A DNA stretch of 64,000 bases from Peptostreptococcus equinus (lineage in GTDB: Bacteria > Bacillota > Clostridia > Peptostreptococcales > Peptostreptococcaceae), in assembly GCF_027125355.1 (NCBI RefSeq), contig NZ_CP114052.1, positions 1,860,001 to 1,924,000 on the forward strand, written 5' to 3'. Positions 32,785-50,601 of this stretch are shown in pieces. Below the pieces are notes generated by a model that ran no database searches, was not told the origin of the DNA, and saw nothing but the letters and a program-made list of their open reading frames with translations. The translations under genes were made by a program, and so were the position numbers. Numbering within the stretch: the first letter of the stretch is position 1; the number at the start of each line of letters is the position of its first letter.

Positions 32785-32795
32785 CGTACTAGATT

Positions 32796-32832: not shown

Positions 32833-33002
32833 ATAAGTTTTTTATTGTTTTTTCAATCTTTTTTATATTTATAATCAGCTATATTTTTGTTTAAAATTGA
32901 CAAAAAGGTTTATGATTTTTTTCATAAAATATAAACTTACTCTTAATACTTTTACTAGTATATATAATTTTTTTGTCTCGGTCAAGAAATTTTTCTTTTA
33001 TA

Positions 33003-33470
33003 TTAATATTCTTTTTCTATAATTTTCCAAGGAGCATTTTTATTTTCTCTAGCTAATATCCAATAAGCATTTTTAACCTTTTGATTTGCTTTTAGCTTAT
33101 CCTTTAATATTGCTTGCATATTCCTAGCCCTAAAATCTACATTTAATATTATGATTTCTTTATCTTTGTATTTATCCTGATTTTTTATCTTGTTTTCAAA
33201 TTTTTTCATATTATTATCATTATATTCTACTTTTTCCATCTTGCAGCCATTATAGTTATCTTTAAAATCTGCTCTAACAAGTTCTACAGCATGTGTAACA
33301 TCCTCTTTTGTATATATTTTTGAATATGCTTTATAAGTAACATTTCTCGCATTCCCCTTATAAAATTCATAATAAAATAAGTTTGACAACATAATCAATA
33401 TGGCAACCACCATAAATATCTTTTCTTTTTTAGGCATTCTCTGCCATAAATTCTTCTTTTCTTGAGTCAT
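33003..33470 (-). CDS. Membrane-anchored protein of unknown function (NTF2-like tail suspected)
   Basis: I do not recognise a named family. The 155-residue protein begins with a basic stretch (MTQEKKNLWQRMPKKEKI), has one membrane segment (about 18-35) and a basic outer domain of about 115 residues. The helix-rich start of that domain, the beta-strand-like IIILNVDF and the ending WILARENKNAPWKIIEKEY recall small NTF2-like or DUF4829-type domains, but this is a weak impression. It is a single gene between two terminators, lying between the giant gene and the S10 operon on the same strand. Confidence 0.6.
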   Translation of the reverse strand: MTQEKKNLWQRMPKKEKIFMVVAILIMLSNLFYYEFYKGNARNVTYKAYSKIYTKEDVTHAVELVRADFKDNYNGCKMEKVEYNDNNMKKFENKIKNQDKYKDKEIIILNVDFRARNMQAILKDKLKANQKVKNAYWILARENKNAPWKIIEKEY

Positions 33471-33540
33471 TAACTTTTCCCCATATCTAAAATATTTATT
33501 ATATTATATCATTATAAAGATTTATATTCTAGTTATATAA

Positions 33541-33577
33541 AAAATACCAGCAGACTATTGTCCACTGGCATTTTTAT
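33541..33577 (-). terminator. Terminator of the giant surface-protein gene
   Basis: AAAATACCAG...CTGGCATTTTT forms the lower stem and AGAC/GTCC extends it, with a U-run on the minus strand. It starts 22 bases after the stop at 33599. Confidence 0.85.
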
Positions 33578-33598
33578 TTTAAGGTTTACAACTATACT

Positions 33599-36500
33599 TT
33601 ACTTCTTTATTTCTTTTTCCTCTTTTCTAGTTTTTATACCATAAGCTATTAATGCTAATCCTATTAATGCTGCGATACCTCCATAGAAATAAGGACTTCT
33701 GCCATCTCCTGTTGATACTAGTCTCTTATTTGGCGACGAACTATTGTTTGAAGTATTTGAAGTACTTGTATTCGTTGTATTTGTTACATTTCTATGATTT
33801 TCAATAGCTGTTCCAACACCTGGAGTTTTTGGTGTTTCTTCTTTAGGTTTCTCTGGTGTGCTTGGAATGTTTGGATTAACTGTTACTGTATTAGACATTT
33901 TATCCTCTGACGATTTATCAGTAAGAGCCAAGCTAGCTGTATTTGGTATTGATCCAAGTTTCATATATGGTGCTAATTCTTCCTCAGTTGCACCATCTTT
34001 AACTTTTGCATTTATTACTAAAGTAATATTTTTTCCCTTATATGAATCAATCTTTTCCACAGGTATGTCAAGCTTAACAATATTTCCTGCCTCAACTGTA
34101 ATATTTTCTTTTAAGCTATCATCTACTCTATTGTTTACTTTTACAGATATCATGTCCTTTGAAGTTGTTAATATATCTTCTAAATCATCTGTTAATACAT
34201 ACTTAGTATACTTTTGAGTGAAATTAACTTTCTTTGAAGTTTCTTCCTGTGCTGCATCTTCGCTTGCTATACTTTTAGCCATAGATTCTCCTATTGGTCT
34301 TTCTACTTGTCGAATTACTTTAGGTTGAACTTCTTCTGTTGATGTTCCAGTAATTGTCGCCCCTTTAGATAAAACCTCTCCAGTTGCAGTTTCTGCTGGT
34401 ACTCTTTCTTCAGTTGGAGCTTCTCCAGTCGTAATTTCTTTAGATGCTTCTCCTTCGGATGTAACTTCTTTAGTTGCAGTTTCTTTTGGTGTTTCTTCTC
34501 CAGATATAACTTTCCCAGATTCTGCTTCTTTTGGTGTTTCTCCTCCAGATATAACTTTCCCAGATTCTGCTCCTTTTGGTGTTTCTCCTCCAGATATAAG
34601 ATTTCTCTTTAAAGAATCTGCTGGGTTTGTTCCTTCTGTTTTAATTTCTCCAGTTGACGTATTTGTATCAGATGATGTAGTTTTATCAACTTCACTGATG
34701 TCAATTGGTACTATTGTATTAATATTGTATGTAAATTCTTGATCTAAACTATACAAAGGAATACTAGTTTTACCATTTACATCTTTTACTGGAGTTGGAT
34801 CTTCTGGTGTTGGAGGTGGAGGTACTTCTCCTGGTAATATTACTTTAACATCATCTTCACCAGCTGCCTTATCATTAAATACTAAACTAGCTACGTTTGG
34901 TATTCCACCATTCTTTCTATAGCTATCCAATTTTGCCTTATCAGTATCTGCCTTTACTCTAGCTTTGATTGTAAGTACTAAATCTTTACCGGCCAACTTG
35001 TCAAAATTCTTAGTTATTATTAATTCTACTTTACCACTTTCATTTGTCAATGTTCCATAGTCAGCTTCATCTACAACTTGTCCTCCTACAGATAGTGTAG
35101 GTTTTTCAGCTGTTTCTAATATGCTTACTAAATTATCACTTAGTGTTAATTTCTTATAGCCTACAACATTTGCCGGTACCTTTGATGTAACAGTATAAGT
35201 GTGTACATCATTTAAGTTAGTAAGTACATATTCATCTTGACCTTCTACCTTCTTTTCTATTGAAGGCTTGTCTCCTGGTGGAGGTGTTACCTTTGCAGTA
35301 TCTTCTATATCCTTTGTTGGATCATTTGTATAAGATAACTTAGCTGTATTTGGTAATACTCCTGATTCTAAGTAATTCGCTAGGGTCTTAGTACTGTCTA
35401 TTGTAGCTGGTACTGTTACCTTTATTACTCTTCCTGCATATTTGTTGGCTTGCGTTGCTCCTACTATATTTAGAGCCACTGTTTGACCATTTGTAGAAAG
35501 TCCTGCCTTAGCTTCATCAGTTAACTTCTGATCTAACACTCCATCTTTTGTTACTTGAACGCTTGCTGTTCCTAACTTAAATATATTGATAAATGTATCT
35601 GATAAACTAATCTTTGTGATGTCGTTCGTATTTTGTGGTACTTTTATATCCATTGTATAATTTAATGGATCATTCATATCTGAAATACTTATTGCATCTT
35701 GATTATTTACCTTTTTATCAAGACTAGTTTTTTCACTTGGCGGTATAACTTTAACTGTATCTTCAATTGTTCGATTATCGTTAAATGTTAATGTTGCCTT
35801 ATTTGGTATAGAACCAGCATTTAGGTATGGGTTAATTTGTTCTGATTTTAGACCATCCTTAACTCTAGCGTTTATAGTAACAACCAGCTCTTTGCCAGCA
35901 AGTGCTGTAAAGTTCTTATCTAATGTAAGTTTTACTCCTTTTGTCTTATCTAGAGAACCATACTCACCTATTGTTCCAGTAATGTCAGTTCCTCCTGCTG
36001 TTATATTAACTCCAGTTGCTTCTAATACATCCTCTAGACTATCGTTTATTACTATCTTTTGGTAACCAGTAACATGTGTTGGTATCTTTGACTTAATCTT
36101 ATATGTATGTTCTTGATTTAATGTAGTAAGTTTGTATTCATTCGCATCATTTACTGTTTTATCAAGTGTTGGTATATCTCCTAGAGGAGGAGTTACCTTG
36201 ACCTCACTAGTAGTCTTAGGATTACCATTTAATGATAAAGTTGCCTGGTTAGGAATTGAATTATTTACATATGTGCTTAAATCAGCATCCTTTTTAATAT
36301 TTGCTTTCATTTCCACTCTTATTGTTTTTCCAGCTAAATTTTCAAATGGAGAAGTCATAATTCCATTTTCTATAGCTAAAGTAACTTTTTGAGCTTGTGT
36401 TACTGAATCTCTACTTACATCAACCTTATTTGTTAAGTCAGTATCTAATTCTTCATCTACATAAACCTGTATTTTATTGCTTGAATCACTATTCTTGGCA

Positions 36501-39500
36501 ATTTCTAAAACTTTTTGAAGTTCATCAGTCATTGTAAGGTTATTAAATCCAGTCACATTTGTTGGAACGGTATAACGTATGTTGTAAACAAATTCTTCAT
36601 CTCTATTTGATAAAGCAATTGCCTGTTGTCCATTAACGTCCTTTATTGGAGTTGGCGTATCACTAGGTGGTGTTACCTTTACTTCATTTGATACCTTAGG
36701 ATTTCCGTTAAATATCAATGTAGCATTATTTGGTATAGCACTACTAGCATATTTGTATGCTATTTGATTAATATTTACTGTATCCTTAATTTTTGCATTT
36801 ATTACTAATGTAATTGTCTTCCCTGCATATGACTTAAATGTTGAATTTGAATCCATAGGTACATCTAATGAAATCATATTAGGATTTGCTATATCTTTCT
36901 TAACTAATCCTGTAAGAGTTTTATCGATGGCATTATCTACTAACACCTGTGTGCTTGATGCTTCAAGAACATCCTGTAAAGTATCCTCTAATCTAATTGA
37001 CTTATATCCCTCAACATTCGAAGGTAATTCTACATTTACCTTATATGTAAATGGAGTATTCTTTGAATTTATCAACAAGTTTTCCTTTGTAGTATCTGTT
37101 GGACCAGTTTCTACAGTCTTTTCTACTGTTGGCTCATTACCTGGTGGTGTTACCCTAACAGTATTTGAAGTCTTAGAATCATTGTTAATAGTCAATTTAG
37201 ATTCATTTGTTATCTCTACATCACCTTGAATTGTCTTGAATTTAGCAAGATCCTCTTCAGTTGCAGAAGATTTTATATTGGATTCTATCCCTATTCTTAA
37301 AGTTTTTCCTGCCAATGTCTTAAAATCAAAGTCAGGATCTTGAGTAGCATTGTCTATCTTAAATACTATATCATTTCCATTTACAGATAAGAATTTATCC
37401 TTTAAATCTTCATTTACTACATCATTCACATATACTGTTACTTTTTCTGGTGCCGTTTCAAGTACACTCTTTAATGTGTCTGATAGTGTTAAACTCTGGT
37501 ATCCAGTAACATTAGTAGGTATGTGTGCCCTAATATCGTAGAAGAATAACTGGTCTTTCTTTCCAAGTGTTAGGCTATTTTTACCATTTACTGTCTTAAT
37601 AGGTGTTGGTGTTTCTCCTGGAGGAGTTACTGTTACTCTATTTGAAGATGTTCCACCATTTCCTACATTCAAGTTAGCTGTATTTCCTACTATAGAATCT
37701 GGATGAGCCTCAATAAATTCGGTAATGTTTGTAATCTTGGCATCAAATGTAAGTATTACTGTTTTACCTACTAGAGCTTTTATCTTGTCTAAGTTTGTAT
37801 ACTTGAATGTGATCAAGTTATTTTCTGTTGTAAATTGTCCATCTGCTCCGATACTATCTGGACTTATCTCAGTTGTAGTTCCGTCTGGTGATTGTATGTT
37901 CACTTTGACTGTATTTATGTCTATAGTTAATTGTGAATCTATTGGGTCAGTAAGCGTAAACTCTGTCCAACCATCAACCTTAGTAACGGGAACTTCAACC
38001 TTGTAATGGAAAGTATCTTGAACCGAATTAAGATCTAAGTGCTGCTTATCATTTACTGTCTTGATTGGAGCTGGTATGTGAGATTTAGTATTATTAATAG
38101 TAAATCCTGCAAATCCTTCATCTGCTACAGTAGATGTCGCTCCCGCTTCATTTACAAGTATTTCAAAGTTTTTATTTGTATCATTTAGTACATATCCTGC
38201 TGGTGCTGATGTTTCCTTGAAATAGTATTGTCCTGGCCCAAGATTATTTACATAAATCTTGTCAATTCCATTTTCCTTAGATGTTGAATATGTTCTAAGG
38301 AATTTATCTGATTGTGTACTTACTGAAGCCTTCTTATAAAGGGCAAATGTTGCGCTCGTTCCTTCTGGTAAAGCCTCTCCATCTGCAGTCTTTGTAAGAC
38401 TTACATTTCCTACTGGAACACTTACCTTAACTGGCTGCGTACTTAAGCTAGGCCTATTATTTACACTTACAGTTGATACATTTGGTATACCAGTCTTCTT
38501 GTATTCTTCTGGTAGGTTATCGTAAATAAATACTCCACCACTTGCATCCTTTAGTGATACCTTGTAAGTAATTACTATTTTACTATCTTTTACCTTCGCT
38601 AATTCTTCTGGCGTATTAATATTCAAACTAATCTTTTGTCCTGAATTTGTAGCTGTAATTGATGGATCTGTAGTAGTACTCTCTGCTTTAACTATCTCAG
38701 TCTTCAATGAACCATCAACCAATTTGAAGTAATCATCCAATGTATCTTCTATTAATAGATTGTTTATTCCGTCAACAGAATTTACTGGAGTTGTGATAGT
38801 AAATGTTCTTTCCTTGCTGTAATCTTCAAAGAAAGATTTATCCACTTTCTTTTTCTGTACTGGTGTCTTAGTATCATTAATACTTATTTTTTGAGTAGCT
38901 GTAACGTTAGGATCTATTAATATATCTCTTGGGCTGCCTACTTCGTATCCTGCTGGTGCCGATACTTCTGTTAATTTGTAATTACCTAATACTAAACCAT
39001 TTATAGTTACAGGATTTAAGCTTGTTATTTCTATATTATTATTTACTGTCACTAATTTTCCACCTATGTACTTTTCAAGCTTAAATACAGCTTTTTGACC
39101 TTGTGGCCATTGACTCGCCCCATCTAAAGTTTTAGTGATTTCTAGTGATCCCTTTGGAACTATTAAGTTCACATCATTCATGACCTTAGATGCATCATTC
39201 ACTTCTATTGTCGCTGTATTATTCAACTTGTCTTCTATTACATATTCAGAAATATTCTTTGTAGTATCTATTTCAGTATTTATTACAAAACTTATCTTTT
39301 TACCTGCATATTTACTTATATTTGTTTGACCTGTGATTGTAGCTGTTACAAATCCATTAGATTCTGCTATTGCAATATCACTAGTATCACCAATACCTTC
39401 TACACTTACAGTTGCGCTCTTATATTTTAATATTTCCTTTAATTGGTCAGATATTACAAACTTATTGTAACCACTTGTATTTACTGGTACATAAGCATCT

Positions 39501-42500
39501 ATTTCAAATGTAATTGGCTTGAGTGCAGCTGCATCAGTTGCTCGTTCTAATTGCTCCTTTTGAAGCTTGATGCTTTCTGCTTGCAAATTACCTGATTCAT
39601 CTAATGCACCCTTTTCAATTTGTGGATCTATTGGCGGTGTAACTGTAGCCTTAGATTCAGTTCCAGGTTGGTTATTCAATAATATATTTGCTGTATTAGG
39701 TATTTCAATCTTTTTGAAGAATAATGCTCCTGTCTCATATGTAGTTAATTGTTCCTGTGTAAGGCCAGACTTCATTCTTGATGAAAATTCCATCACTATT
39801 GTCTTGCCTGCTAATTTAGTATAATCATACTCATCTACAAATTTAGCCGTTATTATACCATCAGATGTTGCCTTTGGATCATAATTAGCAGTATTTGTGA
39901 GGATATAATCCTTACTTTCTGTTAGAGGAGTAATTACGCCATTTGTGTCTACCACACTTAATTTTATACCACCGCTAACTTCAAGCACCTTAGAAAGTGT
40001 ATCAGTTAGTGATAGATTTCCATATCCTAAGACATTTGTAGGAACTTTAGCTTCTACCCTATAATTGAATACCTGATCATTTGTCTTTAAATCTAAATCT
40101 CTTACTCCGTTTACTGTCTTTGTAACCTCAGGAGGTGCTCCTGGATTATCAGGTACTACATAAACTTCATTAGAATTAGCTGACTTGTCATTTACAGTCA
40201 ATTTAGCTGTATTCGCTATTCCCGCATTATTCTCGGGTTGAGAAACATATTGTTTCAATTGATCTAATGTCACTCCATCAGCAACCTTAGCTCTAAATGT
40301 TAACTTGACCTTCTTATTTTGTATATCAGCAAAGTTATCTGTCATAGTAAATTTGATTGTCTTATTTGCTATATCGATAGTTCCCTTCGTAGATATATCA
40401 TTTCCATCAGCTGTTATTTTTGCTGTTCCTGATACTATATCCAATAAATCATTTACTGTATCTTCAATTACAAATGACTTATATCCCTCTATGGATGTAA
40501 CTGGTATTTCCACACTGTATTCAAAATCTTTACTTAATGATTCTAATGTATATGAAGTTTGTCCATTAACCTTCTTTTCAGGTATTGGCGTAGTTGTTTT
40601 ATTGTCTACTACTTTTAAAGTATATTTAGTCACATTAGGATCTACTGCTGTGTCTACAGTAGACTTAAATTCTGGTGCAACTACATTTCCTGCATCTCCA
40701 GGCCCTACATACTTAGAATATACTGTAGGTATATTATTTGTATCTGTAACAATTGTATACTCAGTAGGATTTTTCAAATATCCTGTTGGTGCTTCTATTT
40801 CTTTTAATTTATATACTTTATTTGGGTATATAGCTGGACTCAAGTCTAGCTGTCCATTTGTTTCTGTCTGAAGTGTCTTTACAACTGTAGATCCATTAGA
40901 TTCATAAGATAAATTAAATGTAGCTCCTCCTACAGGTTGCTCTGATTCTGAATTGTCTACCTTATTAATCTTTAAGTCAGTAGTTTTTAATGTATTTGTT
41001 ACATTAATTACACTAGTAACTGATTCATCAATACTTTTTGGATTGTTATTGGCTAGTGGTTCTACGGAATAACTTGCCTTATAACCATTTGTTCCAATTT
41101 CTTGTACAAAATATGAATATGTTTTGCCATCAGCAGATGTCCTAAGAATATTGAAGTTATTTGTGCTACCAAATGTTAAATAGGTATCGGAATTAAATAT
41201 TATCTCCTGTAAATTTCCACTAGAAACATCTACTGTCTTATTGTAAACATCATGATTTTTTGCAAAGTCATTAAATGCTACATCCAAAGTATCTGGCGCA
41301 TCTCCTGGTTTTGGACTTAATTGTCCTGTCGTTGGATCTATATCATCCTTCTCTCCATTTATAATTGAACGTTGTAACAAGAAATTTATTTTTTTAGGTC
41401 TTGTTTGATTAATATTGCTATTGTCATCCCATCTTTTTACAACAGGTACAATAAGTGTTTGGAGATTTAGTAATTTAACTGGATTCTCAACAGTACCATC
41501 ATATGTTCCTATCAATTTTTCTTCTCCATATTTTTTGCTACCATCAGGACCCTCAACCACTGTTCTCTCATATAACTTCACAACATCTATCATTATTGGC
41601 TTTCCTTGTGGATCAGTCATAGGCTTTCCTTGTGCATCTTTTTTCTGCTCTGTTAAAAATTCAATTGTATATCCATATGAATCTGCCGTAAAAGTTGCCC
41701 AATGAGTTACTCCATTTCCATCAATCCAACTAGTCGGAAGGAAATGTTCTGTTAGAAAATACTTACCACCTAGCAGACTCTTATCCATTATGAAAGTACC
41801 ATTGTCTCTAGATATATAATCCGTTCTATAACCATCTGGTATAGGTGGCCCATCTGGTACACCGTCTGCATTAGTATGTTGCTCTAGTTTGAAAGTTGCC
41901 TCTCTTAGCTTATGTTCATCTGGAGACATTTTTATAAATTCAGCTCCATATTGTTTAGGCGGTGTTGCTGTCGCTACACTTTCTAATTTATATTTATCAT
42001 TTACTTTTAAACTAGCAGTATTAACTAGTTTACCATTTTCTACTAATAATTCTGTTATATATTTCAATGATTGGTCTATCATAACCGGAATAGTTACTCT
42101 TATTGTTTTACCAGCTAATTGATTTATTGTGTATTTATCACTAGTATCTAGGCTAAGATCATATATTCCATCTTTGTTTATACCAGAGTTGTAAGTAAAG
42201 TTGAGCCCTGTAGGTTCCTCACCTGTAGTAAAGTTGCTGCCTTCACCAGTACCAATTTTTCTTTTTACTTTAGTAATATCATACATTATCAAACCATCAG
42301 GAATTAAATCATATAATTCTAGTTTTGTCAATTTACTAGTATCATCTGGAATCTTTATATCTATTATATAATCAAATTTTGAATTCCAATATGGCATATC
42401 GTAGGACTTATTTTCTGGAGTAGGTGTAGTTGGGTCTTCTGCTACTAATTCTTTACCATCCGGTCTTACCATCTTATTTATTGTAGGCAAGTCTGGCATT

Positions 42501-45500
42501 GGATCTACTACATCATCTAGGGTTATTAAACCAGTATCTGGATTAGATTCTATAGTCTTAGTCACCTTACCATCTTTTCCGTCTAGCATTTGTACTTCTA
42601 ATTTATCTTTTTCGCTATTGTAGACTACATTAAAATATATATCCTCAACCTTATTATATCCTTCAGGTGCTTTTGTCTCTCTAAGCATAAATTTACCTAC
42701 ATCAAAGTTTGGTAGACTTACTTTACCACCAATATCAGTTGAATATGGTCTTTCATATCTCTTATCTGTTTCCATATTATATAGATCAAACGATGCAGAA
42801 GTTCCTTCAGGTAGTCTTTCAGTAATTATATTTCCGGAACCATTTAGCCCCTGTACCTTTTTCATAAATTCTAAATTAACTAATTTTGTCACTATATTTA
42901 CATTATTGGTTTTAGTTGTAGTTTTAGAATCATTGTTAAATGTTATAGTTCCTGTATTTGGTATAATTAAATCAGGATGCAGTTCAATCAATTTATCTGT
43001 ATCCATTGCTACATAAGCATTGAATGTAAATCTTAATTTTTTACCATTTAACTTAGTGAAGTCTTGATAGTTAGAACCTGTTGTAAATGTTATTGTCTTA
43101 CCCACATCAGATATATCTTTTGAGAATATACTTGTAACATCTTCTTCAGCGCCCGTATTATCAATAGCTACTACCTTACCGCTTCCATTTACAATCGCCA
43201 TAGAGGGATCTACTGTATCTTTTACAACAATATCAGTTATACCTTGTAAATTTATCTTTTCCTGTGTTATTGAATAAGTAACTTTGTCCTTCAAATTGTT
43301 GAGTTTATAGTTTTCCGAATCTGGTAATGTTCCATTAGCAGGTCCGACTTTTTTGACCGGAGTTACTTTTTCATGATTTATAACTTCAAAAGCATAATCC
43401 TTAGTGCTAGGATTATTATCTAAATCAACAGACACTGGTACTCTTTTCAAGCCAGCTATATTTATATTGCCTTGCAAATCTATTTCAATACTAAATGTAC
43501 TATTTAATTCTAAATACTTATCGTCTGGAGTAAATAATTCTTTTAACACATATTTCTGACCCTTAGTAAGATCAGGAATTGATAAAATACCATTTGTATC
43601 AGTCGTATGCTCTCTAGTATTACCATTTGCGTTTGTAATAACGAATTTTCTTCCGCTTAAAGGTGTTCCATTTGTATCTTTTTTAATCATATTAAGTGAT
43701 ACTTGATCTATTTTATTTTTTAAATCATATCCAGTAACGCCTTCTGTGACTCTTGAATAAGCAGGAACAGGTTCTTCCTCTACAACATAAGTATATTCAT
43801 CACCGTTATTATCATACTTAGGATACTTATTCGTCATTTTACCATCTACGATAGTATCTTTAAATTCATATGTCCACGGCTTACTCACCCTTTTAGTATC
43901 TATGAGCTTCTTTGAATCTGGCCCTCCTTCATCTACTGAGTACCTGTATAGATTAATTGCTATATAGTCAGGTCTATTATTATATCTATTATCTTCGTCG
44001 TCCCAAGTTTTAACACCTGAGATTGTTGCAGGCTCATTATTTACGACTTGATTTTCTTCAATAATAGCACCTGACAAAGTTCTAAATACTATAGCATCGG
44101 GATCAGTACTAGGTATATCAGTATCTGATACTGTTACCCATATATTTTCATATATTGGGAATGTTCCTATTAATGGACTCTCTACCATTATGTAATCTCC
44201 AGCTACAACATTATTAAATGTTACCTCCCCTAAATCGTTAGATGTAGATGAATATGCTTGACCAGTGAAAGGGTCTTTGGCAGGTTCAACTGACATCGAT
44301 CCGTCAGAGCCTCTTTTATATAGTTTAAATGTTGCTCCTGGTTCTTTTACCTTACCAAGCGTTTTTGTAAATACAAAATTCCTTAAAATTTGAGGCTTTA
44401 CATTCACAGTCGATTGAAGTTTAACATCTCCAAATTCCAAATGAGCTGTATTCGGTACTACACCATTCTTTAAATATCCAGATTCAAGTAAGTTCACACC
44501 ATGTTTTACTTTCGCATCAACTTCAATCCTGATCACCTTACCTTCTATTCCTAGACTGGATATATTGGAGCCCTCAATTATTAATTTTAAATCATTAGGA
44601 TTTGCATAATCAATATTCTGTTTTAATAATTTATCAAGTTCTGGGCTATCTGTAAATGTACTACCATCGCCGACCTGCACTCTCACACCAGTGATATCAA
44701 AGGCTTTCGGTATATTATCTGTAATAGTGTAAGTCTTACTTGAATCAAGTGGTGCTGGCATAGGAGTATCAATAGCATATTGCCAAGTCTGACCTATACT
44801 TATAGGCAAATCATTTTTAGAATATGCATTTACTGCTTGTCCACTCTCTGCTTTAATTCTAGCTTTTTTAGTTATTGTAGGAGTTGTAGTCTTCTCATTT
44901 ATTGGCTTTAGTGCTTGTCCAACATCTACTACACCTCCCTGATTATCAGGAACCTTGATTAAAGCATTAGGAATTGGTCCTTTTATAGGAGTATAGCCTC
45001 TTGGTGTAGAGGTCTCTATAAAATAATATGTACCCGTATCTAATAAAGGTATCTTTAGCGTTTGGTCTCCTGTTATTGTATATGTGTGTAAACTCTTATC
45101 TTTTGTCTCATCAGGAATAGGACTAGGTTCTGCTTGTGACGGATCCCTTAATTTATAAAGTGTAAATGAAGCACTTAAATCACTAGTAAGAGGAGTTGCA
45201 GTAGAATCAGCTGCGCCTGTTCCTTTAATTAGTTTTGTAAGACTTACTTCAGCCTTTGTAAGCTGAATAACTGTTTCATTTGTTTCTTTTGATGGTTCTT
45301 CATTTAGAGTCAATTTAGCTTTATTCGGTATTTTACCTTGAGGATAATATGAAGTTGAAGTATCTGCGAATATTCTATCTACAGTATTCAACATCTTAGC
45401 CTCAACCTCAATTACAAGAGTCTTGTTTTCTAAATCTTTGAAACCTCCTGTCTTTTCCCATGTAAATAAATTGCCTTCTGCTACTATAAAAGTACCATCT

Positions 45501-48500
45501 ACCTCAACCTGTGAAGTTGATCCAGGATCTGGTAGTATATATGCCTTGGCTGTTTTCATATCTACACTTAAATATTTATCAAATTTATCTTCGATTTTAA
45601 TAGATGTGTATCCTTCTACAGATTTTATAGGCACTCTAATTTGGTAGGTTACATTTTCACCATTCTTCTTTAAAATATATGGAGAGTTCATAGTAGGTTT
45701 TTTATAATCTTTATTAGAATCAAATTCCCCTAACAACATTTTTTCCGGTATTGGAGACACTGGACCATTATTATTAACTGAGATCGTTTTTTTAGCATTA
45801 TCTATTTTATTTTCTAGTAATGGATCTGTTGGGCCTCCTGTAATAGATACACTATTATCATTATTTACAATAATATTCCATGGAGTCTTATCTACTACAT
45901 ACCCCTCTGGAGTGCTTAACTCTGTTAGTGTGTAGTTTTTACCAGGGGTAAGCTCACTAATTTTCATGGTTCCATCCACCTCAGTATTTAACTTTCTATC
46001 TGGTTCTGCTCCTGTAGTGTCTTTCAATTCAAATATTACATTCGCCAATGTAAGTCTATTTCCATCTTGATCTCTTAATTTACCAAACTTTGTTAATTTA
46101 ATTTCTGGTGTTGGTATTACTGCTGTAACCTTATTTGAAGGTATAAAATCACGTCCATTTATTGAAAAACTTGATGTATTGTCAATTTCATATCTATGTC
46201 TATCATTAGAATATTTCGTTATTAAGTTAGAACCTGGTTTTATTTGGACATCAAATTCAAACGATACTTTTCCTTCTGCCATATCTTCGAATAGATTTGG
46301 TGTTGTAGAAGTTTCTTTTATAGTGTAGCTAACTACATTGGAAGCATCTGTATTCTTAGTTAAATTCTCCGCAGGTATATCTACTCTAGATCCATCTTTT
46401 TTTATATAATATGCTTTTACAGAATTAGCATCATAATTCAAATACGAATCCAAAGGGTCTTTAACAACTAGTGATTCATAACCTGTAGTATCAGTTGGCA
46501 TGGTAAGCTCAATTTTATGTCTATATTTTTCACTTGAGTCGTTTAATATCTCAAGCCCACCCTTCCAATCAGGAGTAGAATTATCTGTAGGTATTTTTGC
46601 AATAAACTTCTGTATAGTTGGGATTTTAAGTTCTGGTGGAACTACACGCGCCTTATTTGAATATTTAATGTTGCCATCCGTTTCTATTTGTGAAGTATTT
46701 GGTATACCTATAGATTTACCATCAATAGAATCAGGAGTTTTTATCATCTCTTCTATCTGAGCATCTGTCACAGTAGATTTTATCTGTGCCTTTACTTTAA
46801 ATACATATTCCTTACCTTCATAACCTCCAAATGGATAAGTTCTTCCATCTATTATCTTTGGGTTTTGCGGTAAGCTATATTGTACAGTATTAGTAGTTTT
46901 ATCTACTGAAATAGCTGGAGTACTTGCTATATCACCTGAATCTCCACCTTTCATTTCTGCGACAAGTGTATTATTTGGTGTCTCAACTAAACTTACATCC
47001 AATATATCTAACCTTGAATCAATATTATCCTTTAAAACCATTGTATTGTTGACTTCTTGAACTTTTGCTGTAAAAGTATATACTGTGTCAAAATAAAATG
47101 ACTGTCTTCTCTTATCCAACTCTTTATAGGTAGTACCATTATTATAGTCTTCTTCGGTTGATGCTACATATTTCTTTATATCTATATCACAATCTTTCTT
47201 AGGATTAGCTTCGGTCTCTAATCCACTAGTATTTAAAGAAGAAGTTGTACTATTAAATGTAAAGTCTATACTGGACAGCGGATTATATGCATTAGGCATA
47301 AATTCGCCTTCTGTCGCTGTATATTCAATTCTATAATTACCTGGTAGTAAATTAGTCATATCAATAGTAAGATCTGAGCCTTCTATTTTTGTGTTTATAC
47401 CAGGTTTAATTTCATACTCTGTTTCAACTATACCGGTTGTGTCTGGGTTATCTCCAATCTTAATGAGCTTATAATCAGCCCCTGGTATCAGAGCCCTATT
47501 AAAATTAAATTTAACACTTTCTATATTATTATTATTTGCATTTTTGAATGTCTGTATTAATTTATTTGCAAAATCTGTTATATTTGATGATGTTGCAAAA
47601 TACTCTGGTTTAGTGGCCATTGAAGTCATAGTATTCATAATTTTGGGCCTCATATTATACCAACCACTAGAATAACCGTAATAATTAGAAATCAATCCAG
47701 AGGTAGGATTTAAGTTTTCCCAAAAAGCTGTAACCATTGTAGCATTACTTCTATCTAAGCCACCTGTAGACTTTAACTCATCTGAGATAATTTTCATACC
47801 ATCAAGCATAACCTTATAGTCTTCAGTACGACCAACCCTATCACCAACTACAATATCTCCATCTGGAGATTGCCTCTCATCAGACCATAAATAAGCTTTA
47901 TCGTTACTACCAGGGTAGTAAATTTGTCCTTTATTATAATATGTGTATCCCCCATATTGATAATAACCTCCTCCATGATAATATGTATATCCGGAGTATA
48001 TACTACCTCTACGTGCTAACGCATTATCTCTAGATGAAACTTCTATGCTATATCCATCAGTTTCCCTAGCAGTATTCCATACTGCACTATTAATATTTCC
48101 TGGCTCAAATTGAGAGTTAGGAGCATCATATAAGTTGAATAATTTCTTAGTACTATCCGGTATATTTGTCCAAGTTGCAGTGTTAGCAGCACCATCTGTA
48201 ACCAATACATAAATAGTTTCACGCTGTCTTTTCGCTCCATTTGGCAATACATACGACTTATTATTATAAATATTATTTGTATTCGTTGCTCTTTGATATG
48301 TATCTTGAGCTTTTCTCATGCCATCTATTGTCGGAGTTCCTCCCTCTGTATACACATCATTAAAATATTTTGTTACAGAAGAAGTTGCAGCATCTTTTCT
48401 TGTTATTAAAGGACTATTCTCATAAGGTAAGTTATCTATTTTATATGAATAGTTTGAGTCTTCATATAGTACTGCCCCAGAACTATTAATATATGCCATA

Positions 48501-48754
48501 CCTTGCGAACCTTGAAATGTTGTAAACATCGCTCTATCTTTAGGTGAAATTCCATCTGCATCTGTTCCCATATCTAAACCACTTATTATATTATTTACAG
48601 CCTTACCAACATCTGCAATAGTACCATCAAATGATCCAGAAAAATCCTGTACAAATACAACATCTACATAACTAGCTGTATCAGGCCATTTAAAATCTAG
48701 CGTTCCTGACAAAGGCCTTAAGCATAGTTGATCATGGCTACCTGTTAACGACAT
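33599..48754 (-). CDS. Giant multi-domain cell-wall surface protein (VWA, fimbrial-D2, SpaA and Cna-B modules)
   Basis: A single open frame of 5051 codons encodes a probable adhesin. A von Willebrand A domain (about 25-410) has the MIDAS core DFSGS at 37-41. Behind it come about 18 D2-type isopeptide modules of about 145-160 residues (each with a P-T/S-N-V-x-G-Y segment, a D-x-L-x-x-x-L segment, an AGK segment and a VTPP linker). These mix with about 9 SpaA-like domains (ending ETxAPxGY) and 2 Cna-B-like domains (GVKTWDD, VKRWDDN). The last eight modules are nearly uninterrupted D2 tandems. A Thr/Asn/Ser-rich wall segment, the sorting signal LVSTG, a membrane helix and a KTRKEEKEIKK tail close it. 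This frame lacks a signal peptide and ribosome binding site; both lie upstream in another frame (48781-48927). Domain counts are by eye. Confidence 0.9.
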   Translation of the reverse strand: MSLTGSHDQLCLRPLSGTLDFKWPDTASYVDVVFVQDFSGSFDGTIADVGKAVNNIISGLDMGTDADGISPKDRAMFTTFQGSQGMAYINSSGAVLYEDSNYSYKIDNLPYENSPLITRKDAATSSVTKYFNDVYTEGGTPTIDGMRKAQDTYQRATNTNNIYNNKSYVLPNGAKRQRETIYVLVTDGAANTATWTNIPDSTKKLFNLYDAPNSQFEPGNINSAVWNTARETDGYSIEVSSRDNALARRGSIYSGYTYYHGGGYYQYGGYTYYNKGQIYYPGSNDKAYLWSDERQSPDGDIVVGDRVGRTEDYKVMLDGMKIISDELKSTGGLDRSNATMVTAFWENLNPTSGLISNYYGYSSGWYNMRPKIMNTMTSMATKPEYFATSSNITDFANKLIQTFKNANNNNIESVKFNFNRALIPGADYKLIKIGDNPDTTGIVETEYEIKPGINTKIEGSDLTIDMTNLLPGNYRIEYTATEGEFMPNAYNPLSSIDFTFNSTTSSLNTSGLETEANPKKDCDIDIKKYVASTEEDYNNGTTYKELDKRRQSFYFDTVYTFTAKVQEVNNTMVLKDNIDSRLDILDVSLVETPNNTLVAEMKGGDSGDIASTPAISVDKTTNTVQYSLPQNPKIIDGRTYPFGGYEGKEYVFKVKAQIKSTVTDAQIEEMIKTPDSIDGKSIGIPNTSQIETDGNIKYSNKARVVPPELKIPTIQKFIAKIPTDNSTPDWKGGLEILNDSSEKYRHKIELTMPTDTTGYESLVVKDPLDSYLNYDANSVKAYYIKKDGSRVDIPAENLTKNTDASNVVSYTIKETSTTPNLFEDMAEGKVSFEFDVQIKPGSNLITKYSNDRHRYEIDNTSSFSINGRDFIPSNKVTAVIPTPEIKLTKFGKLRDQDGNRLTLANVIFELKDTTGAEPDRKLNTEVDGTMKISELTPGKNYTLTELSTPEGYVVDKTPWNIIVNNDNSVSITGGPTDPLLENKIDNAKKTISVNNNGPVSPIPEKMLLGEFDSNKDYKKPTMNSPYILKKNGENVTYQIRVPIKSVEGYTSIKIEDKFDKYLSVDMKTAKAYILPDPGSTSQVEVDGTFIVAEGNLFTWEKTGGFKDLENKTLVIEVEAKMLNTVDRIFADTSTSYYPQGKIPNKAKLTLNEEPSKETNETVIQLTKAEVSLTKLIKGTGAADSTATPLTSDLSASFTLYKLRDPSQAEPSPIPDETKDKSLHTYTITGDQTLKIPLLDTGTYYFIETSTPRGYTPIKGPIPNALIKVPDNQGGVVDVGQALKPINEKTTTPTITKKARIKAESGQAVNAYSKNDLPISIGQTWQYAIDTPMPAPLDSSKTYTITDNIPKAFDITGVRVQVGDGSTFTDSPELDKLLKQNIDYANPNDLKLIIEGSNISSLGIEGKVIRIEVDAKVKHGVNLLESGYLKNGVVPNTAHLEFGDVKLQSTVNVKPQILRNFVFTKTLGKVKEPGATFKLYKRGSDGSMSVEPAKDPFTGQAYSSTSNDLGEVTFNNVVAGDYIMVESPLIGTFPIYENIWVTVSDTDIPSTDPDAIVFRTLSGAIIEENQVVNNEPATISGVKTWDDEDNRYNNRPDYIAINLYRYSVDEGGPDSKKLIDTKRVSKPWTYEFKDTIVDGKMTNKYPKYDNNGDEYTYVVEEEPVPAYSRVTEGVTGYDLKNKIDQVSLNMIKKDTNGTPLSGRKFVITNANGNTREHTTDTNGILSIPDLTKGQKYVLKELFTPDDKYLELNSTFSIEIDLQGNINIAGLKRVPVSVDLDNNPSTKDYAFEVINHEKVTPVKKVGPANGTLPDSENYKLNNLKDKVTYSITQEKINLQGITDIVVKDTVDPSMAIVNGSGKVVAIDNTGAEEDVTSIFSKDISDVGKTITFTTGSNYQDFTKLNGKKLRFTFNAYVAMDTDKLIELHPDLIIPNTGTITFNNDSKTTTKTNNVNIVTKLVNLEFMKKVQGLNGSGNIITERLPEGTSASFDLYNMETDKRYERPYSTDIGGKVSLPNFDVGKFMLRETKAPEGYNKVEDIYFNVVYNSEKDKLEVQMLDGKDGKVTKTIESNPDTGLITLDDVVDPMPDLPTINKMVRPDGKELVAEDPTTPTPENKSYDMPYWNSKFDYIIDIKIPDDTSKLTKLELYDLIPDGLIMYDITKVKRKIGTGEGSNFTTGEEPTGLNFTYNSGINKDGIYDLSLDTSDKYTINQLAGKTIRVTIPVMIDQSLKYITELLVENGKLVNTASLKVNDKYKLESVATATPPKQYGAEFIKMSPDEHKLREATFKLEQHTNADGVPDGPPIPDGYRTDYISRDNGTFIMDKSLLGGKYFLTEHFLPTSWIDGNGVTHWATFTADSYGYTIEFLTEQKKDAQGKPMTDPQGKPIMIDVVKLYERTVVEGPDGSKKYGEEKLIGTYDGTVENPVKLLNLQTLIVPVVKRWDDNSNINQTRPKKINFLLQRSIINGEKDDIDPTTGQLSPKPGDAPDTLDVAFNDFAKNHDVYNKTVDVSSGNLQEIIFNSDTYLTFGSTNNFNILRTSADGKTYSYFVQEIGTNGYKASYSVEPLANNNPKSIDESVTSVINVTNTLKTTDLKINKVDNSESEQPVGGATFNLSYESNGSTVVKTLQTETNGQLDLSPAIYPNKVYKLKEIEAPTGYLKNPTEYTIVTDTNNIPTVYSKYVGPGDAGNVVAPEFKSTVDTAVDPNVTKYTLKVVDNKTTTPIPEKKVNGQTSYTLESLSKDFEYSVEIPVTSIEGYKSFVIEDTVNDLLDIVSGTAKITADGNDISTKGTIDIANKTIKFTMTDNFADIQNKKVKLTFRAKVADGVTLDQLKQYVSQPENNAGIANTAKLTVNDKSANSNEVYVVPDNPGAPPEVTKTVNGVRDLDLKTNDQVFNYRVEAKVPTNVLGYGNLSLTDTLSKVLEVSGGIKLSVVDTNGVITPLTESKDYILTNTANYDPKATSDGIITAKFVDEYDYTKLAGKTIVMEFSSRMKSGLTQEQLTTYETGALFFKKIEIPNTANILLNNQPGTESKATVTPPIDPQIEKGALDESGNLQAESIKLQKEQLERATDAAALKPITFEIDAYVPVNTSGYNKFVISDQLKEILKYKSATVSVEGIGDTSDIAIAESNGFVTATITGQTNISKYAGKKISFVINTEIDTTKNISEYVIEDKLNNTATIEVNDASKVMNDVNLIVPKGSLEITKTLDGASQWPQGQKAVFKLEKYIGGKLVTVNNNIEITSLNPVTINGLVLGNYKLTEVSAPAGYEVGSPRDILIDPNVTATQKISINDTKTPVQKKKVDKSFFEDYSKERTFTITTPVNSVDGINNLLIEDTLDDYFKLVDGSLKTEIVKAESTTTDPSITATNSGQKISLNINTPEELAKVKDSKIVITYKVSLKDASGGVFIYDNLPEEYKKTGIPNVSTVSVNNRPSLSTQPVKVSVPVGNVSLTKTADGEALPEGTSATFALYKKASVSTQSDKFLRTYSTSKENGIDKIYVNNLGPGQYYFKETSAPAGYVLNDTNKNFEILVNEAGATSTVADEGFAGFTINNTKSHIPAPIKTVNDKQHLDLNSVQDTFHYKVEVPVTKVDGWTEFTLTDPIDSQLTIDINTVKVNIQSPDGTTTEISPDSIGADGQFTTENNLITFKYTNLDKIKALVGKTVILTFDAKITNITEFIEAHPDSIVGNTANLNVGNGGTSSNRVTVTPPGETPTPIKTVNGKNSLTLGKKDQLFFYDIRAHIPTNVTGYQSLTLSDTLKSVLETAPEKVTVYVNDVVNEDLKDKFLSVNGNDIVFKIDNATQDPDFDFKTLAGKTLRIGIESNIKSSATEEDLAKFKTIQGDVEITNESKLTINNDSKTSNTVRVTPPGNEPTVEKTVETGPTDTTKENLLINSKNTPFTYKVNVELPSNVEGYKSIRLEDTLQDVLEASSTQVLVDNAIDKTLTGLVKKDIANPNMISLDVPMDSNSTFKSYAGKTITLVINAKIKDTVNINQIAYKYASSAIPNNATLIFNGNPKVSNEVKVTPPSDTPTPIKDVNGQQAIALSNRDEEFVYNIRYTVPTNVTGFNNLTMTDELQKVLEIAKNSDSSNKIQVYVDEELDTDLTNKVDVSRDSVTQAQKVTLAIENGIMTSPFENLAGKTIRVEMKANIKKDADLSTYVNNSIPNQATLSLNGNPKTTSEVKVTPPLGDIPTLDKTVNDANEYKLTTLNQEHTYKIKSKIPTHVTGYQKIVINDSLEDVLEATGVNITAGGTDITGTIGEYGSLDKTKGVKLTLDKNFTALAGKELVVTINARVKDGLKSEQINPYLNAGSIPNKATLTFNDNRTIEDTVKVIPPSEKTSLDKKVNNQDAISISDMNDPLNYTMDIKVPQNTNDITKISLSDTFINIFKLGTASVQVTKDGVLDQKLTDEAKAGLSTNGQTVALNIVGATQANKYAGRVIKVTVPATIDSTKTLANYLESGVLPNTAKLSYTNDPTKDIEDTAKVTPPPGDKPSIEKKVEGQDEYVLTNLNDVHTYTVTSKVPANVVGYKKLTLSDNLVSILETAEKPTLSVGGQVVDEADYGTLTNESGKVELIITKNFDKLAGKDLVLTIKARVKADTDKAKLDSYRKNGGIPNVASLVFNDKAAGEDDVKVILPGEVPPPPTPEDPTPVKDVNGKTSIPLYSLDQEFTYNINTIVPIDISEVDKTTSSDTNTSTGEIKTEGTNPADSLKRNLISGGETPKGAESGKVISGGETPKEAESGKVISGEETPKETATKEVTSEGEASKEITTGEAPTEERVPAETATGEVLSKGATITGTSTEEVQPKVIRQVERPIGESMAKSIASEDAAQEETSKKVNFTQKYTKYVLTDDLEDILTTSKDMISVKVNNRVDDSLKENITVEAGNIVKLDIPVEKIDSYKGKNITLVINAKVKDGATEEELAPYMKLGSIPNTASLALTDKSSEDKMSNTVTVNPNIPSTPEKPKEETPKTPGVGTAIENHRNVTNTTNTSTSNTSNNSSSPNKRLVSTGDGRSPYFYGGIAALIGLALIAYGIKTRKEEKEIKK
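34212..34693 (-). repeat. Low-complexity insert inside the last D2-like module
   Basis: About 160 residues rich in Glu, Thr, Ser, Gly and Lys split the last module between NINTIVP and YTKYVLTDDL, two segments that are adjacent in the other modules. The inserted stretch is made of 15-residue degenerate repeats (pattern ETPKEAESGKVISGG). The reading frame is kept. It could be a flexible spacer or a recently expanded repeat. Confidence 0.7.
34502..34591 (-). repeat. Two near-identical 45-bp tandem repeats
   Basis: Units 34502-34546 and 34547-34591 differ at very few positions (for example GCTTCT versus GCTCCT). Degenerate copies flank them. At 45 bp (15 codons) a gain or loss of units keeps frame, so this part can vary in length between strains. 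Confidence 0.85.
47915..48005 (-). repeat. Tyr/Gly-rich segment within the VWA region
   Basis: Residues about 250-280 read as a run of YY, GG and YG pairs (SGYTYYHGGGYYQYGGYTYY), unlike the rest of the VWA domain. It could be an exposed, sticky loop next to the metal-binding face. The function is unknown. Confidence 0.6.
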
Positions 48755-48780
48755 TGTATTTTTGACATTTTTTATTTCTC

Positions 48781-48927
48781 CTACAGCATCTGCTGTAACA
48801 GTTTTTTATCTGTTGACACTCCTGTTGGTGTTACAGAATCAGCTGCAAGAGCATTTGCAGGCAAAGAACTGGCCAGTAGAACTAGTGCCATAAATACACT
48901 AGTTACTTTCTTAAATCGTTTTTTCAT
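48781..48927 (-). pseudogene. Signal-peptide segment of the giant protein, out of frame with the body
   Basis: An ATG at 48927 follows GGAGGATTTT and encodes a clear signal peptide: basic MKKRFKKVTS, a hydrophobic core FMALVLLASSLP and an ANALA-AD cleavage site. After about 42 residues it runs through six A bases (plus-strand T run 48802-48807) and stops at TAG 48781. With seven A bases the frame would continue as TVTADAVGEIKNVKN straight into the 5051-codon frame, giving about 5109 residues in all. This is therefore the true 5' end of the giant gene, separated by a one-base shift. Confidence 0.9.
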
Positions 48928-49023
48928 AAAATCCTCCACATAATCCACTGTTTTTCTTTTTAAAATCCATATTTTTCCTTATACACTTCAATTAATTTTC
49001 AAAATATATATTTTCATCCTAAT

Positions 49024-49059
49024 AAACACTAAGAGGAAATAAAATCCATCTTAGTGTTT
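49024..49059 (-). promoter_or_regulatory. Long hairpin in the giant-gene leader
   Basis: AAACACTAAGA (49024-49034) pairs perfectly with TCTTAGTGTTT (49049-49059) over a 14-base loop. No U-run follows on the minus strand. It lies between the promoter and the signal-peptide start, so it would be in the 5' untranslated RNA. It could stabilise the long mRNA or be a regulator target. Confidence 0.65.
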
Positions 49060-49086
49060 GGCTATATTTGGTCATATTTTGCCACA
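49057..49086 (-). repeat. Three 10-bp direct repeats downstream of the giant-gene promoter
   Basis: On the plus strand TTTGGCTATA, TTTGGTCATA and TTTTGCCACA follow one another at exactly 10 bp. A related TTTTTGCCACA occurs near 49290-49300. Such helical-phase repeats are typical operator arrays. The regulator is unknown. Confidence 0.55.
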
Positions 49087-49101
49087 TTTTATCTTATTTC
49101 A

Positions 49102-49129
49102 ATTCTATCATATTATTGTCAATTGTCAA
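49102..49129 (-). promoter_or_regulatory. Promoter of the giant surface-protein gene
   Basis: On the minus strand TTGACA (plus 49124-49129) and TAGAAT (plus 49102-49107) are 16 bp apart. A second TTGACA follows the first within the spacer. The predicted leader to the ATG at 48927 is about 165 bases. The rest of 48928-49359 is very AT-rich and holds no gene. Confidence 0.7.
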
Positions 49130-49359
49130 TTTTTATATCTTCTTACATAAGTTTATTTTATATTTTTTAGAAGCTTATACTAGATATATACCTAATATTA
49201 TATAGAATAATTAATCTTTTAATTTTTTATTAATATATTTTTATAACTTTATCCTATTCTAATATTTTTTCTGACTTAATTACCTACCATTTTTGCCACA
49301 TTTATTTTATCTTTTATTATATTCTTATTTAATTTTTAGATAGCCATATTTTTTGTACA

Positions 49360-49393
49360 CAAAAAAAGTCAGTAGTAAAAACTACTGACTTTA
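49360..49393 (-). terminator. Terminator of the str operon (after tuf)
   Basis: AAAGTCAGTAGT and ACTACTGACTTT form a perfect 12-bp stem with loop AAAA, followed by seven U residues on the minus strand. It lies 16 bases after the tuf stop. It insulates the giant gene from str-operon read-through. Confidence 0.95.
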
Positions 49394-49407
49394 TATAATT
49401 CAATTAA

Positions 49408-50601
49408 TTATTCAATTATTGATGCAACAACTCCTGAAGCTACTGTTCTACCACCTTCTCTTATGGCAAATCTTAAACCTTCTTCAACACATATTGAGTT
49501 GATTAGGTCTACTTCTATTGTTACGTTATCTCCTGGCATTACCATTTCTATTCCTTCTGGTAATTTACACTCACCTGTTACGTCTGTTGTTCTGAAATAG
49601 AACTGTGGTCTATATCCATCAAAGAATGGAGTATGTCTACCACCTTCTTCTTTCTTTAACACATATATTTCTGCTGTAAACTTTGTATGTGCATGTACTG
49701 AACCCGGCTTTGCTAATACCTGGCCTCTTTCTATTTCATCTCTTTGGATTCCTCTTAGTAGTGCTCCTATATTATCTCCAGCTTCTGCCTGATCTAGTAA
49801 CTTTCTAAACATTTCTACTCCTGTTACTACTACCTTTCTTGGCTGTTCTGATAATCCTACTAATTCTACTTCATCAGATACCTTTAATACTCCTCTTTCT
49901 ACTCTACCTGTAGCTACTGTTCCTCTTCCTGTGATTGAGAAGATGTCTTCTACTGGCATTAAGAAGTCCTTGTCTACTGCTCTTTCTGGTGCTGGAATAT
50001 ATTCATCTATTTCTTCGAAGAAATCTACTATTATATCTGACCACTTTGATCCTGGCTCTTCTAATGCCATTAATGCTGATCCTCTTACTATTGGAGTATC
50101 ATCTCCTGGGAATTCATATTCATTTAGTAATTCTCTTACTTCCATTTCTACTAATTCTAATAGTTCTTCATCATCTACCATATCGCACTTGTTTAGGAAT
50201 ACTACTATATATGGTACACCTACCTGTCTTGATAGTAGGATATGTTCTCTTGTCTGAGGCATTGGTCCATCTGTTGCTGCAACTACTAGGATTGCACCGT
50301 CCATCTGTGCTGCTCCTGTTATCATGTTCTTTACATAATCCGCATGGCCTGGGCAGTCTACGTGTGCGTAGTGTCTGTTTGGTGTTTCATATTCAACATG
50401 CGCTGTTGATATTGTGATTCCTCTTTCTCTTTCTTCTGGTGCCTTATCTATGTTAGCGAAGTCTACTGCTTCACCTAACTGATACTTATCAAATAAAGTC
50501 TTTGTTATTGCTGCTGTTAATGTTGTTTTACCATGGTCTACGTGACCTATTGTTCCAATGTTAACATGTGGCTTGTTTCTTTCAAATTTAGCTTTTGCCA
50601 T
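49408..50601 (-). CDS. tuf: Elongation factor Tu
   Basis: EF-Tu delivers aminoacyl-tRNA to the ribosome as a GTP complex. G1 is [10 protein letters not shown], the switch I end is [15 protein letters not shown]3 is [13 protein letters not shown] with the catalytic His, G4 is NKCD and G5 is SAL. Domains 2 and 3 follow from about 210 on, with [13 protein letters not shown] and the C-terminal [12 protein letters not shown]. The length of 397 residues is normal. The gene has its own consensus promoter besides being last in rpsL-rpsG-fusA-tuf. Confidence 0.98.

What the first reader, a model, noticed from the sequence alone, without database searches (positions are those of the whole stretch)
48755..48927. 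Giant surface protein split from its signal peptide at an A-run: possible phase-variation switch
The ribosome binding site and signal peptide (ATG 48927) are in one frame; the 5051-codon body is in another. They meet at six A bases (plus T run 48802-48807). Exactly one more A would give a continuous protein of about 5109 residues with no stop codon. The rest of the 15-kb frame is intact, which argues against a long-dead gene. Reversible slippage at this run, or polymerase slippage during transcription, could switch surface display on and off. A homopolymer sequencing error is the main alternative.
Basis: partly seen in the sequence, partly recalled or inferred. Interest (0 to 1): 0.8.

Follow-up and report, generated by a model that had tools for sequence, protein, structure and literature searches.

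The report
Frameshifted giant adhesin, probably switched off
A huge bacterial surface-adhesion gene is cut off from its export signal by a small reading-frame slip at a run of A bases; most likely this is a recently silenced copy (or a sequencing slip), though the spot also looks unusually prone to ribosome slippage.

Summary
Shine-Dalgarno and signal peptide (ATG 48927) open a 48-codon ORF; the 5051-codon body (33599-48754) lies in another frame. The frames overlap by about 22 nt at the A6 run. The body is a giant wall-anchored adhesin with isopeptide-type domains. In 13 of 13 relatives examined, signal and head share one frame, so the split is derived. No stop in 5051 codons makes it recent.

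A phase-variation switch is not established: A6 runs occur in the gene at chance frequency, none lies at this junction in the 4 relatives held as DNA, and no second allele was found. The closest precedent is the A7/A6 OFF allele of Listeria inlA. A 294-kb sample of this complete genome showed no other homopolymer break, though the test is insensitive, so an assembly error stays possible. Unexpectedly, an SD-like AGGAG and a 7-bp hairpin flank the run: 8 of 722 A-runs of the sample have both kinds of element, 2 of 722 an SD plus an equally stable fold. Minus-one ribosomal slippage is a live minority reading, although published hairpin rules fail.

The parts
49365..49392 (-). Intrinsic-terminator-like hairpin after tuf (EF-Tu, 49408-50601); suggests the adhesin is a separate transcription unit
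   Evidence: 12-pair stem followed by T run; tuf by Pfam
49102..49129 (-). Promoter-like site TTGACA-16-TAGAAT (11 of 12, TG before -10)
   Evidence: the scan found 5 sites in 48700-49450 against 5.2 expected in shuffles; this is the only one with 11 of 12
49018..49061 (-). Hairpin in the leader of the adhesin mRNA, function unknown
   Evidence: -16.8 kcal/mol, z -4.2
48933..48937 (-). Shine-Dalgarno GGAGG of the signal ORF
48781..48927 (-). 48-codon ORF: signal peptide plus about 20 residues, ending at TAG
   Evidence: one match in the genome
48819..48823 (-). SD-like AGGAG inside the signal ORF, upstream of the A-run
   Evidence: 9 of 722 A-runs have a strong SD at this spacing
48802..48807 (-). 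A6 run (AAA_AAA in the signal frame), the likely place of the frame change
   Evidence: overlap of the two frames is 48784-48805
48781..48798 (-). 7-bp hairpin (loop AGAT) just downstream of the A-run
   Evidence: 30 nt from 48799 fold at -7.9 kcal/mol (z -4.0); 47 nt from 48801, with two outer pairs, at -11.5 (z -4.0); 0 of 200 shuffles as stable in each
33599..48754 (-). Body of the giant adhesin, 5051 codons, no stop; no SD at usual spacing before its first ATG (by eye)
47550..48670 (-). VWA-like head with MIDAS-like DFSGS, GGTPT and VTDG motifs (approximate limits)
   Evidence: Pfam VWA in 4 of 5 aligned members, best E 5.3e-4, but E=1 and below cut-off for the window's own copy
33869..47131 (-). 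18 copies of a ~140-aa isopeptide-type domain (19 matched stretches, two of them halves of one copy split by an insert), interspersed with SpaA/Cna_B domains
   Evidence: TIGR04226: 16 stretches in the 4752-aa piece given
34420..34599 (.). 45-bp tandem repeat x4, in frame, in the low-complexity insert that splits the last domain
33599..33721 (-). Sorting-signal-like end LVSTGD, hydrophobic stretch, basic tail
   Evidence: read by eye

Best explanation
This is a giant adhesin gene, probably acquired horizontally, lying between tuf and the S10 ribosomal operon. A recent one-step length change in or next to the A6 run has put its export signal out of frame with the body. As sequenced, translation starts normally, makes the signal peptide and stops after 48 codons; the body has no evident ribosome site or signal of its own, so the adhesin should not reach the surface (an OFF allele). 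Like any A-run of this length, the tract can change length again at a low rate, so the allele may be reversible in a population, but nothing shows a tract evolved for switching. Shown: split frames, intact body, one frame in the relatives examined, recency. Inferred: acquisition, loss of display, slippage as the cause, reversibility.
For: 13 of 13 relatives examined have signal and head in one frame. Homology in the body frame extends upstream of the body's first ATG. That ATG has no SD at usual spacing. The body is intact over 15 kb, with 16 A6/A7 runs inside it in frame. Zero nonsense codons bounds neutral divergence at about 0.5%. Promoter-like site, SD and signal intact. Precedent: natural A7/A6 alleles at the 5' end of the Listeria surface-protein gene inlA, A6 giving an 8-aa peptide, with reversion estimated about 1,000-fold above the point-mutation frequency (PMC2831843, section 13 read).
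Against: No second allele or strain was available, so neither the mutation nor its reversal was seen. A homopolymer error would look the same. The run sits in a context unusually fit for ribosomal slippage, which a plain indel does not predict. No relative above 46% identity was found, so selection on the body was not measured.
Confidence: 0.55

Rival explanations
1. Sequencing or assembly error in the homopolymer: the organism's gene is continuous and the adhesin is normally displayed.
For: Single-base homopolymer errors are a common error kind (general knowledge); one in a 2.0-Mb assembly is enough. Two relatives also show breaks at other places, whose cause is unknown: L024, from a metagenome-assembled genome, near 4254-4274, and P0006, which ends abruptly.
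Against: The assembly is one contig, 100% complete, 0.24% contamination. In 294,002 nt sampled, 62 frame transitions were called: by eye 59 look like ordinary gene-to-gene junctions, 2 lie at stretch edges and 1 is a deletion in a prophage remnant. That model has limited sensitivity: it did not call the target itself. 16 other A6/A7 runs inside the body ORF are in frame.
Confidence: 0.25
2. Minus-one ribosomal slippage at AAA_AAA, helped by the upstream AGGAG and the downstream hairpin, lets a fraction of ribosomes pass from the signal frame into the body. It is either a programmed signal that sets the dose of a very costly protein, or a leak that partly rescues an indel.
For: The direction fits (signal frame to body frame is -1). 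AGGAG lies upstream within the published 6-17 nt range; the 7-bp stem starts 4 nt after the run. Of 722 A>=6 runs inside ORFs of the sample (the target is not among them), 88 have an SD of the published types near that spacing, 63 a stem of 7 or more, 8 both; 10 have a fold as stable as the target's, 2 of these with such an SD. The 0-frame stop follows at once. The body is intact. A_AA.A occurs among the tetramers of IS elements (PMC4066793 passages).
Against: The motif is only the tetramer A_AAA, the lowest of six tetramers active in E. coli and in need of a strong stimulator (PMC4066793 passages). By that paper's hairpin rules (section 13), in my simplified test, the target has no qualifying hairpin, with or without the rule on the first pair. 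The short hairpin alone is not rare: 9 of 104 runs and 47 of 722 fold at -7.9 or lower. No relative has the split, so no conservation. The comparison was made after seeing the site.
Confidence: 0.12
3. True contingency locus: the A-run is maintained by selection as an ON/OFF switch of surface display.
For: Surface protein; run near the 5' end, where poly-A tracts of 5-8 nt concentrate; the authors of PMC2831843 argue that A-tracts, six-base ones included, are general regulators, and measured A6-to-A7 reversion in inlA (passages; section 13).
Against: Six A is under the 7-nt minimum used for poly-AT phase-variation calls in PMC3711429 (passages). Run counts in this gene are at chance. No run of six or more lies at the junction in L023, L024, L025 or L064 (L023 has a T6 about 110 nt further on, in the head). 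The four other adhesin/pilin ORFs read in this genome have a signal-like start in frame, by eye.
Confidence: 0.06
4. The body is translated separately without the signal, by re-initiation after the short ORF.
For: An AGGAG (48782-48778) and a 7-codon ORF overlap the body's first ATG.
Against: That ATG is in the signal frame; the body's ATG has no SD at usual spacing; a sorting signal without a signal peptide makes little sense for a cytosolic protein.
Confidence: 0.02

Closest known systems
Listeria monocytogenes inlA A7/A6 alleles (PMC2831843)
   Same: Surface protein gene; frame lost at a short A-run at the 5' end; a short truncated peptide results
   Different: There both alleles are known among isolates and reversion was measured; here one allele is known, and the run follows the signal peptide
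SpaH/EbpB-type LPXTG pilins and isopeptide adhesins (NF033902, TIGR04226, PF17802, PF05738)
   Same: Isopeptide-type domains, SpaA and Cna_B domains, sorting-signal-like end
   Different: 18 copies and a VWA-like head in one 5051-codon body; signal out of frame in this allele
-1 programmed frameshifting of the dnaX / IS3-family type (PMC4066793; dnaX layout partly from recall)
   Same: A-run, SD-like element upstream, hairpin downstream, stop in the 0 frame soon after
   Different: Tetramer not heptamer; hairpin fails the published rules; not conserved; not a mobile-element or dnaX gene
Transcriptional slippage of Citrobacter rodentium tssM (PMC4256274)
   Same: Out-of-frame gene with a poly-A tract just before the stop
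   Different: 11 A there, 6 here; the paper finds no SD or structure near that site, this one has both

Membership tests
Slipped-strand contingency (phase-variation) locus | Repeat tract longer than expected by chance | tested here: not met
   A6, 16 in the gene against 16.0 expected; no tandem repeat at the junction
Slipped-strand contingency (phase-variation) locus | Tract-length variants among strains or cells | not testable with these tools
   No second copy found: 0 of 60 relatives and 0 of 70 other family genomes, 8 same-genus ones included; no reads
Slipped-strand contingency (phase-variation) locus | Tract kept at the same place in relatives | tested here: not met
   No run of 6 or more at the junction in the four relatives held as DNA: L023, L024, L025, L064
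-1 programmed ribosomal frameshifting | Slippery motif in the right frame | tested here: inconclusive
   A_AAA tetramer in the signal frame; no X_XXZ_ZZN heptamer at the run in that frame; tetramer efficiency from PMC4066793 passages
-1 programmed ribosomal frameshifting | SD-like stimulator 6-17 nt upstream | tested here: met
   background 54 of 371 in-frame AAA_AAA sites
-1 programmed ribosomal frameshifting | Downstream hairpin by the rules of PMC4066793 | tested here: not met
   none, with or without the G-C-first rule (simplified test, hairpins of 17-45 nt); looser stem count and fold find it
-1 programmed ribosomal frameshifting | Conserved frame change in homologues | tested here: not met
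   13 of 13 relatives examined in one frame
Programmed transcriptional slippage | Homopolymer of about 8 or more | tested here: not met
   A6; lengths from PMC3711429, PMC5009743 and PMC4256274 passages
Sortase-anchored isopeptide adhesin | Isopeptide-type repeat domains | tested here: met
   TIGR04226 E 5.8e-194, 16 stretches; NF033902 above cut-off (on 4752 of the 5051 residues)
Sortase-anchored isopeptide adhesin | C-terminal sorting signal | tested here: met
   LVSTGD + hydrophobic + basic tail, by eye; not canonical LPXTG
Sortase-anchored isopeptide adhesin | Export signal in frame | tested here: not met
   in frame in 13 of 13 relatives examined

The most novel reading that the evidence does not exclude
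Surface display of a giant adhesin is gated by minus-one ribosomal slippage between the signal peptide and the mature protein: only the few ribosomes that slip at AAA_AAA, aided by an internal SD and a hairpin, commit to a 5,000-residue protein. I know of no such gating of a wall-anchored protein (recall; the one search aimed at it found 442 papers with at least 4 of its 5 terms, and the 12 listed have no occurrence of 'programmed frameshift').
Probability: 0.1. Interest if true: 0.75.

Novelty: new member of a known kind. Interest (0 to 1): 0.36.

Why it matters
If it is a plain OFF allele, it adds a giant adhesin to the known cases of 5' homopolymer silencing of surface proteins, and warns against annotating the body as an intact cytosolic or surface protein. 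If the slippage reading is right, it would be a new way to ration a very expensive surface protein, and easy to test with a short reporter.

Tried and rejected
Phase-variation switch as the lead reading: set aside for lack of a long tract, of conservation and of a second allele. Transcriptional slippage: set aside on run length. Long-dead pseudogene: rejected (no stops). Search for the same species or a second allele: the protein collection gave only relatives of 31-44% identity (which scored only the 1125 candidates sharing most words, 5 hits, 4 hits among 6625 candidates). Genome contigs gave nothing with the single sequence, then three distant loci with the alignment; viral contigs gave none. 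Of 390 other genomes of the class, 2 matched: G446 is real (L064; L066 is the same gene), while the match in G236 (L065, E 5.3e-4) looks like a chance match to a binding lipoprotein and was dropped. Solved structures: no credible match to the head (best E 0.017). The L049 frame change first looked like a phage tail frameshift but reads as a deletion in a tape-measure-like gene (by eye). My note places the AGGAG one base off; one search gives the right place.

Full report
What is in the sequence. The window is 1,860,001-1,924,000 of a single 1,995,029-base contig (100% complete, 0.24% contamination). On the minus strand, after tuf and a terminator-like hairpin (49392-49365), come a promoter-like site TTGACA-16-TAGAAT (49129-49102), a leader with a stable hairpin, GGAGG (48937-48933) and ATG 48927. 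This ORF encodes a Sec-type signal peptide (judged by eye and by hydropathy) and ends at TAG 48783-48781 after 48 codons. The body, 48754-33599, is 5051 codons without a stop in another frame. The body frame is open from 48805, so the frames overlap over 48805-48784, which includes most of the A6 run 48807-48802. The frame change must lie in this bracket; the A-run is its most likely place, but the sequence alone does not fix it.

The body is a real adhesin. Pfam finds SpaA, Cna_B and a pilin backbone domain (the body in two pieces); NCBIfam finds the isopeptide-forming domain TIGR04226 in 16 stretches (E 5.8e-194) and NF033902 (4752 of 5051 residues). A profile grown from one unit finds 19 stretches, which I count as 18 domains, the last being split by a low-complexity insert with a 45-bp tandem repeat. 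The first 500 residues look VWA-like (DFSGS, GGTPT, VTDG), but Pfam VWA scores only E=1 for the window's copy; 4 of 5 aligned members match at E of 1 or better, best 5.3e-4. The end carries LVSTGD, a hydrophobic stretch and a basic tail.

The split is derived. Nine database proteins (P0001-P0009) and four genes seen as DNA (L023, L024, L025; L064) have a signal-like start, a linker and the head in one frame: 13 of 13, read by eye. Predicted-protein collections favour unbroken frames, so the 4 of 4 DNA loci, found through the head, are the fairer count. The body frame upstream of its first ATG matches the relatives, and that ATG has no SD at usual spacing, so the body is unlikely to be an independent gene.

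The split is recent. For this sequence, 3.9% of random substitutions (transitions weighted double) would make a stop; none in 15,153 sites bounds neutral divergence at about 0.5% (95%). This does not tell an OFF allele from an error or from recoding.

Is the run special? In length, no: the gene has 16 A6 and 3 A7 runs, and a first-order Markov model expects 16.0 A6 and 25.2 runs of six or more. No run of six or more lies at the junction in the four relatives held as DNA. In context, yes, moderately. AGGAG lies at 48823-48819 and a 7-bp hairpin at 48798-48781 (z about -4.0 against shuffles). I compared it with all A>=6 runs inside kept ORFs of 100 aa or more in 294 kb of this genome, the target itself not being among them: 722 runs, of which 88 have an SD-like element of the published types near the published spacing, 63 a stem of at least 7 pairs and 8 both; 10 have a fold at least as stable as the target's, 2 of them with such an SD. 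For stronger SDs the counts are 9, and 1 together with the stem. Earlier counts with other cut-offs: (window only) gave 0 of 104 with a strong SD, 3 with a stem of 7 or more, and 9 with a fold of -7.9 or lower; one search gave 2 of 722 with a strong SD and a stem of 6 or more, and 47 with a fold of -7.9 or lower. The shift from signal frame to body frame is minus one, the direction that such elements promote. Against this, the motif is the weak tetramer A_AAA, and under my simplified version of the hairpin rules of PMC4066793 (hairpins of 17-45 nt) the target has no qualifying hairpin, with or without the G-C-first rule. Of 371 in-frame AAA_AAA sites, 54 have the SD, 2 a strict hairpin, 0 both; 9 a relaxed hairpin, 2 both. 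The comparison was made after seeing the site. I therefore give recoding about 12%.

Could it be an error? A frame-transition model over 294,002 nt called 62 transitions. By eye, 59 are gene-to-gene junctions with a start codon near, 2 are at stretch edges and 1 is a deletion in a prophage tape-measure-like gene. No other homopolymer break was seen. But the model also failed to call the target, whose first ORF is short, so its sensitivity for such cases is low. One error per genome cannot be excluded.

How it most likely works. As sequenced, ribosomes start at 48927, make a 48-residue peptide with an export signal and stop; the adhesin is not displayed (inferred). The nearest precedent is inlA of Listeria, where A7 and A6 alleles occur in nature, A6 gives an 8-residue peptide, and A6-to-A7 reversion was estimated about 1,000-fold above the point-mutation frequency (PMC2831843, section 13 read; passages). 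By analogy this allele may be reversible at low rate. Transcriptional slippage needs longer runs by the papers whose passages I saw (9 A or T in PMC5009743; 11 A in PMC4256274; often 8 or more in PMC3711429). Of PMC4066793 I saw passages and section 13. Other papers were seen in search listings only.

Where the gene came from. The head was found in 0 of 60 relatives, 0 of 70 other family genomes by profile and 2 of 390 other class genomes by profile, of which one is credible. The gene sits between tuf and the S10 operon. S10 is present in all eight same-genus species searched. Both flanks were seen in four (in two of these only the last 17 and 33 residues of tuf, at a contig start), each with different cargo and none with the adhesin; in two no tuf lay within the 20-kb stretch, and in two the contig ended. 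So it is probably an acquired gene in a cargo hotspot.

Verdict. Most likely a recently silenced giant adhesin (0.55), else an assembly error (0.25), else ribosomal slippage (0.12). Interest is moderate: ordinary as an OFF allele, high only if the slippage reading is confirmed.

Noticed in passing
window 32346-50601; L056-L063: The interval between tuf and rpsJ (S10) carries different cargo in each same-genus species where both flanks were seen (4 of 8): probably an insertion hotspot between two highly expressed operons.
   Followed up: partly
window 34420-34599: 45-bp tandem repeat (x4, in frame) inside a low-complexity insert that splits the last isopeptide-type domain; length variation here would keep the frame.
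   Followed up: partly
window 49018-49061 (minus strand): Strong hairpin (-16.8 kcal/mol, z -4.2) in the leader between promoter and ATG, not followed by a T run; possible regulatory element.
   Followed up: no
window 48782-48797 (plus strand): On the other strand the same hairpin followed by the T run scores as an intrinsic-terminator-like site, antisense within the gene.
   Followed up: no
L049 near 864 (G000:C1 about 600,864): Tape-measure-like prophage gene truncated by what looks like a deletion joined to an unrelated short frame: a prophage remnant.
   Followed up: partly
L024 near 4254-4274: A relative of the adhesin in a Tissierellia metagenome-assembled genome has a frame break elsewhere in the gene; assembly error or a second silenced copy.
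   Followed up: no
L021 6397-15913 (G000:C1 about 314.4-323.9 kb): Sortase-pilus-like locus (three pilin/adhesin ORFs, three sortase-like ORFs, by eye) in the same genome, all with open frames.
   Followed up: partly
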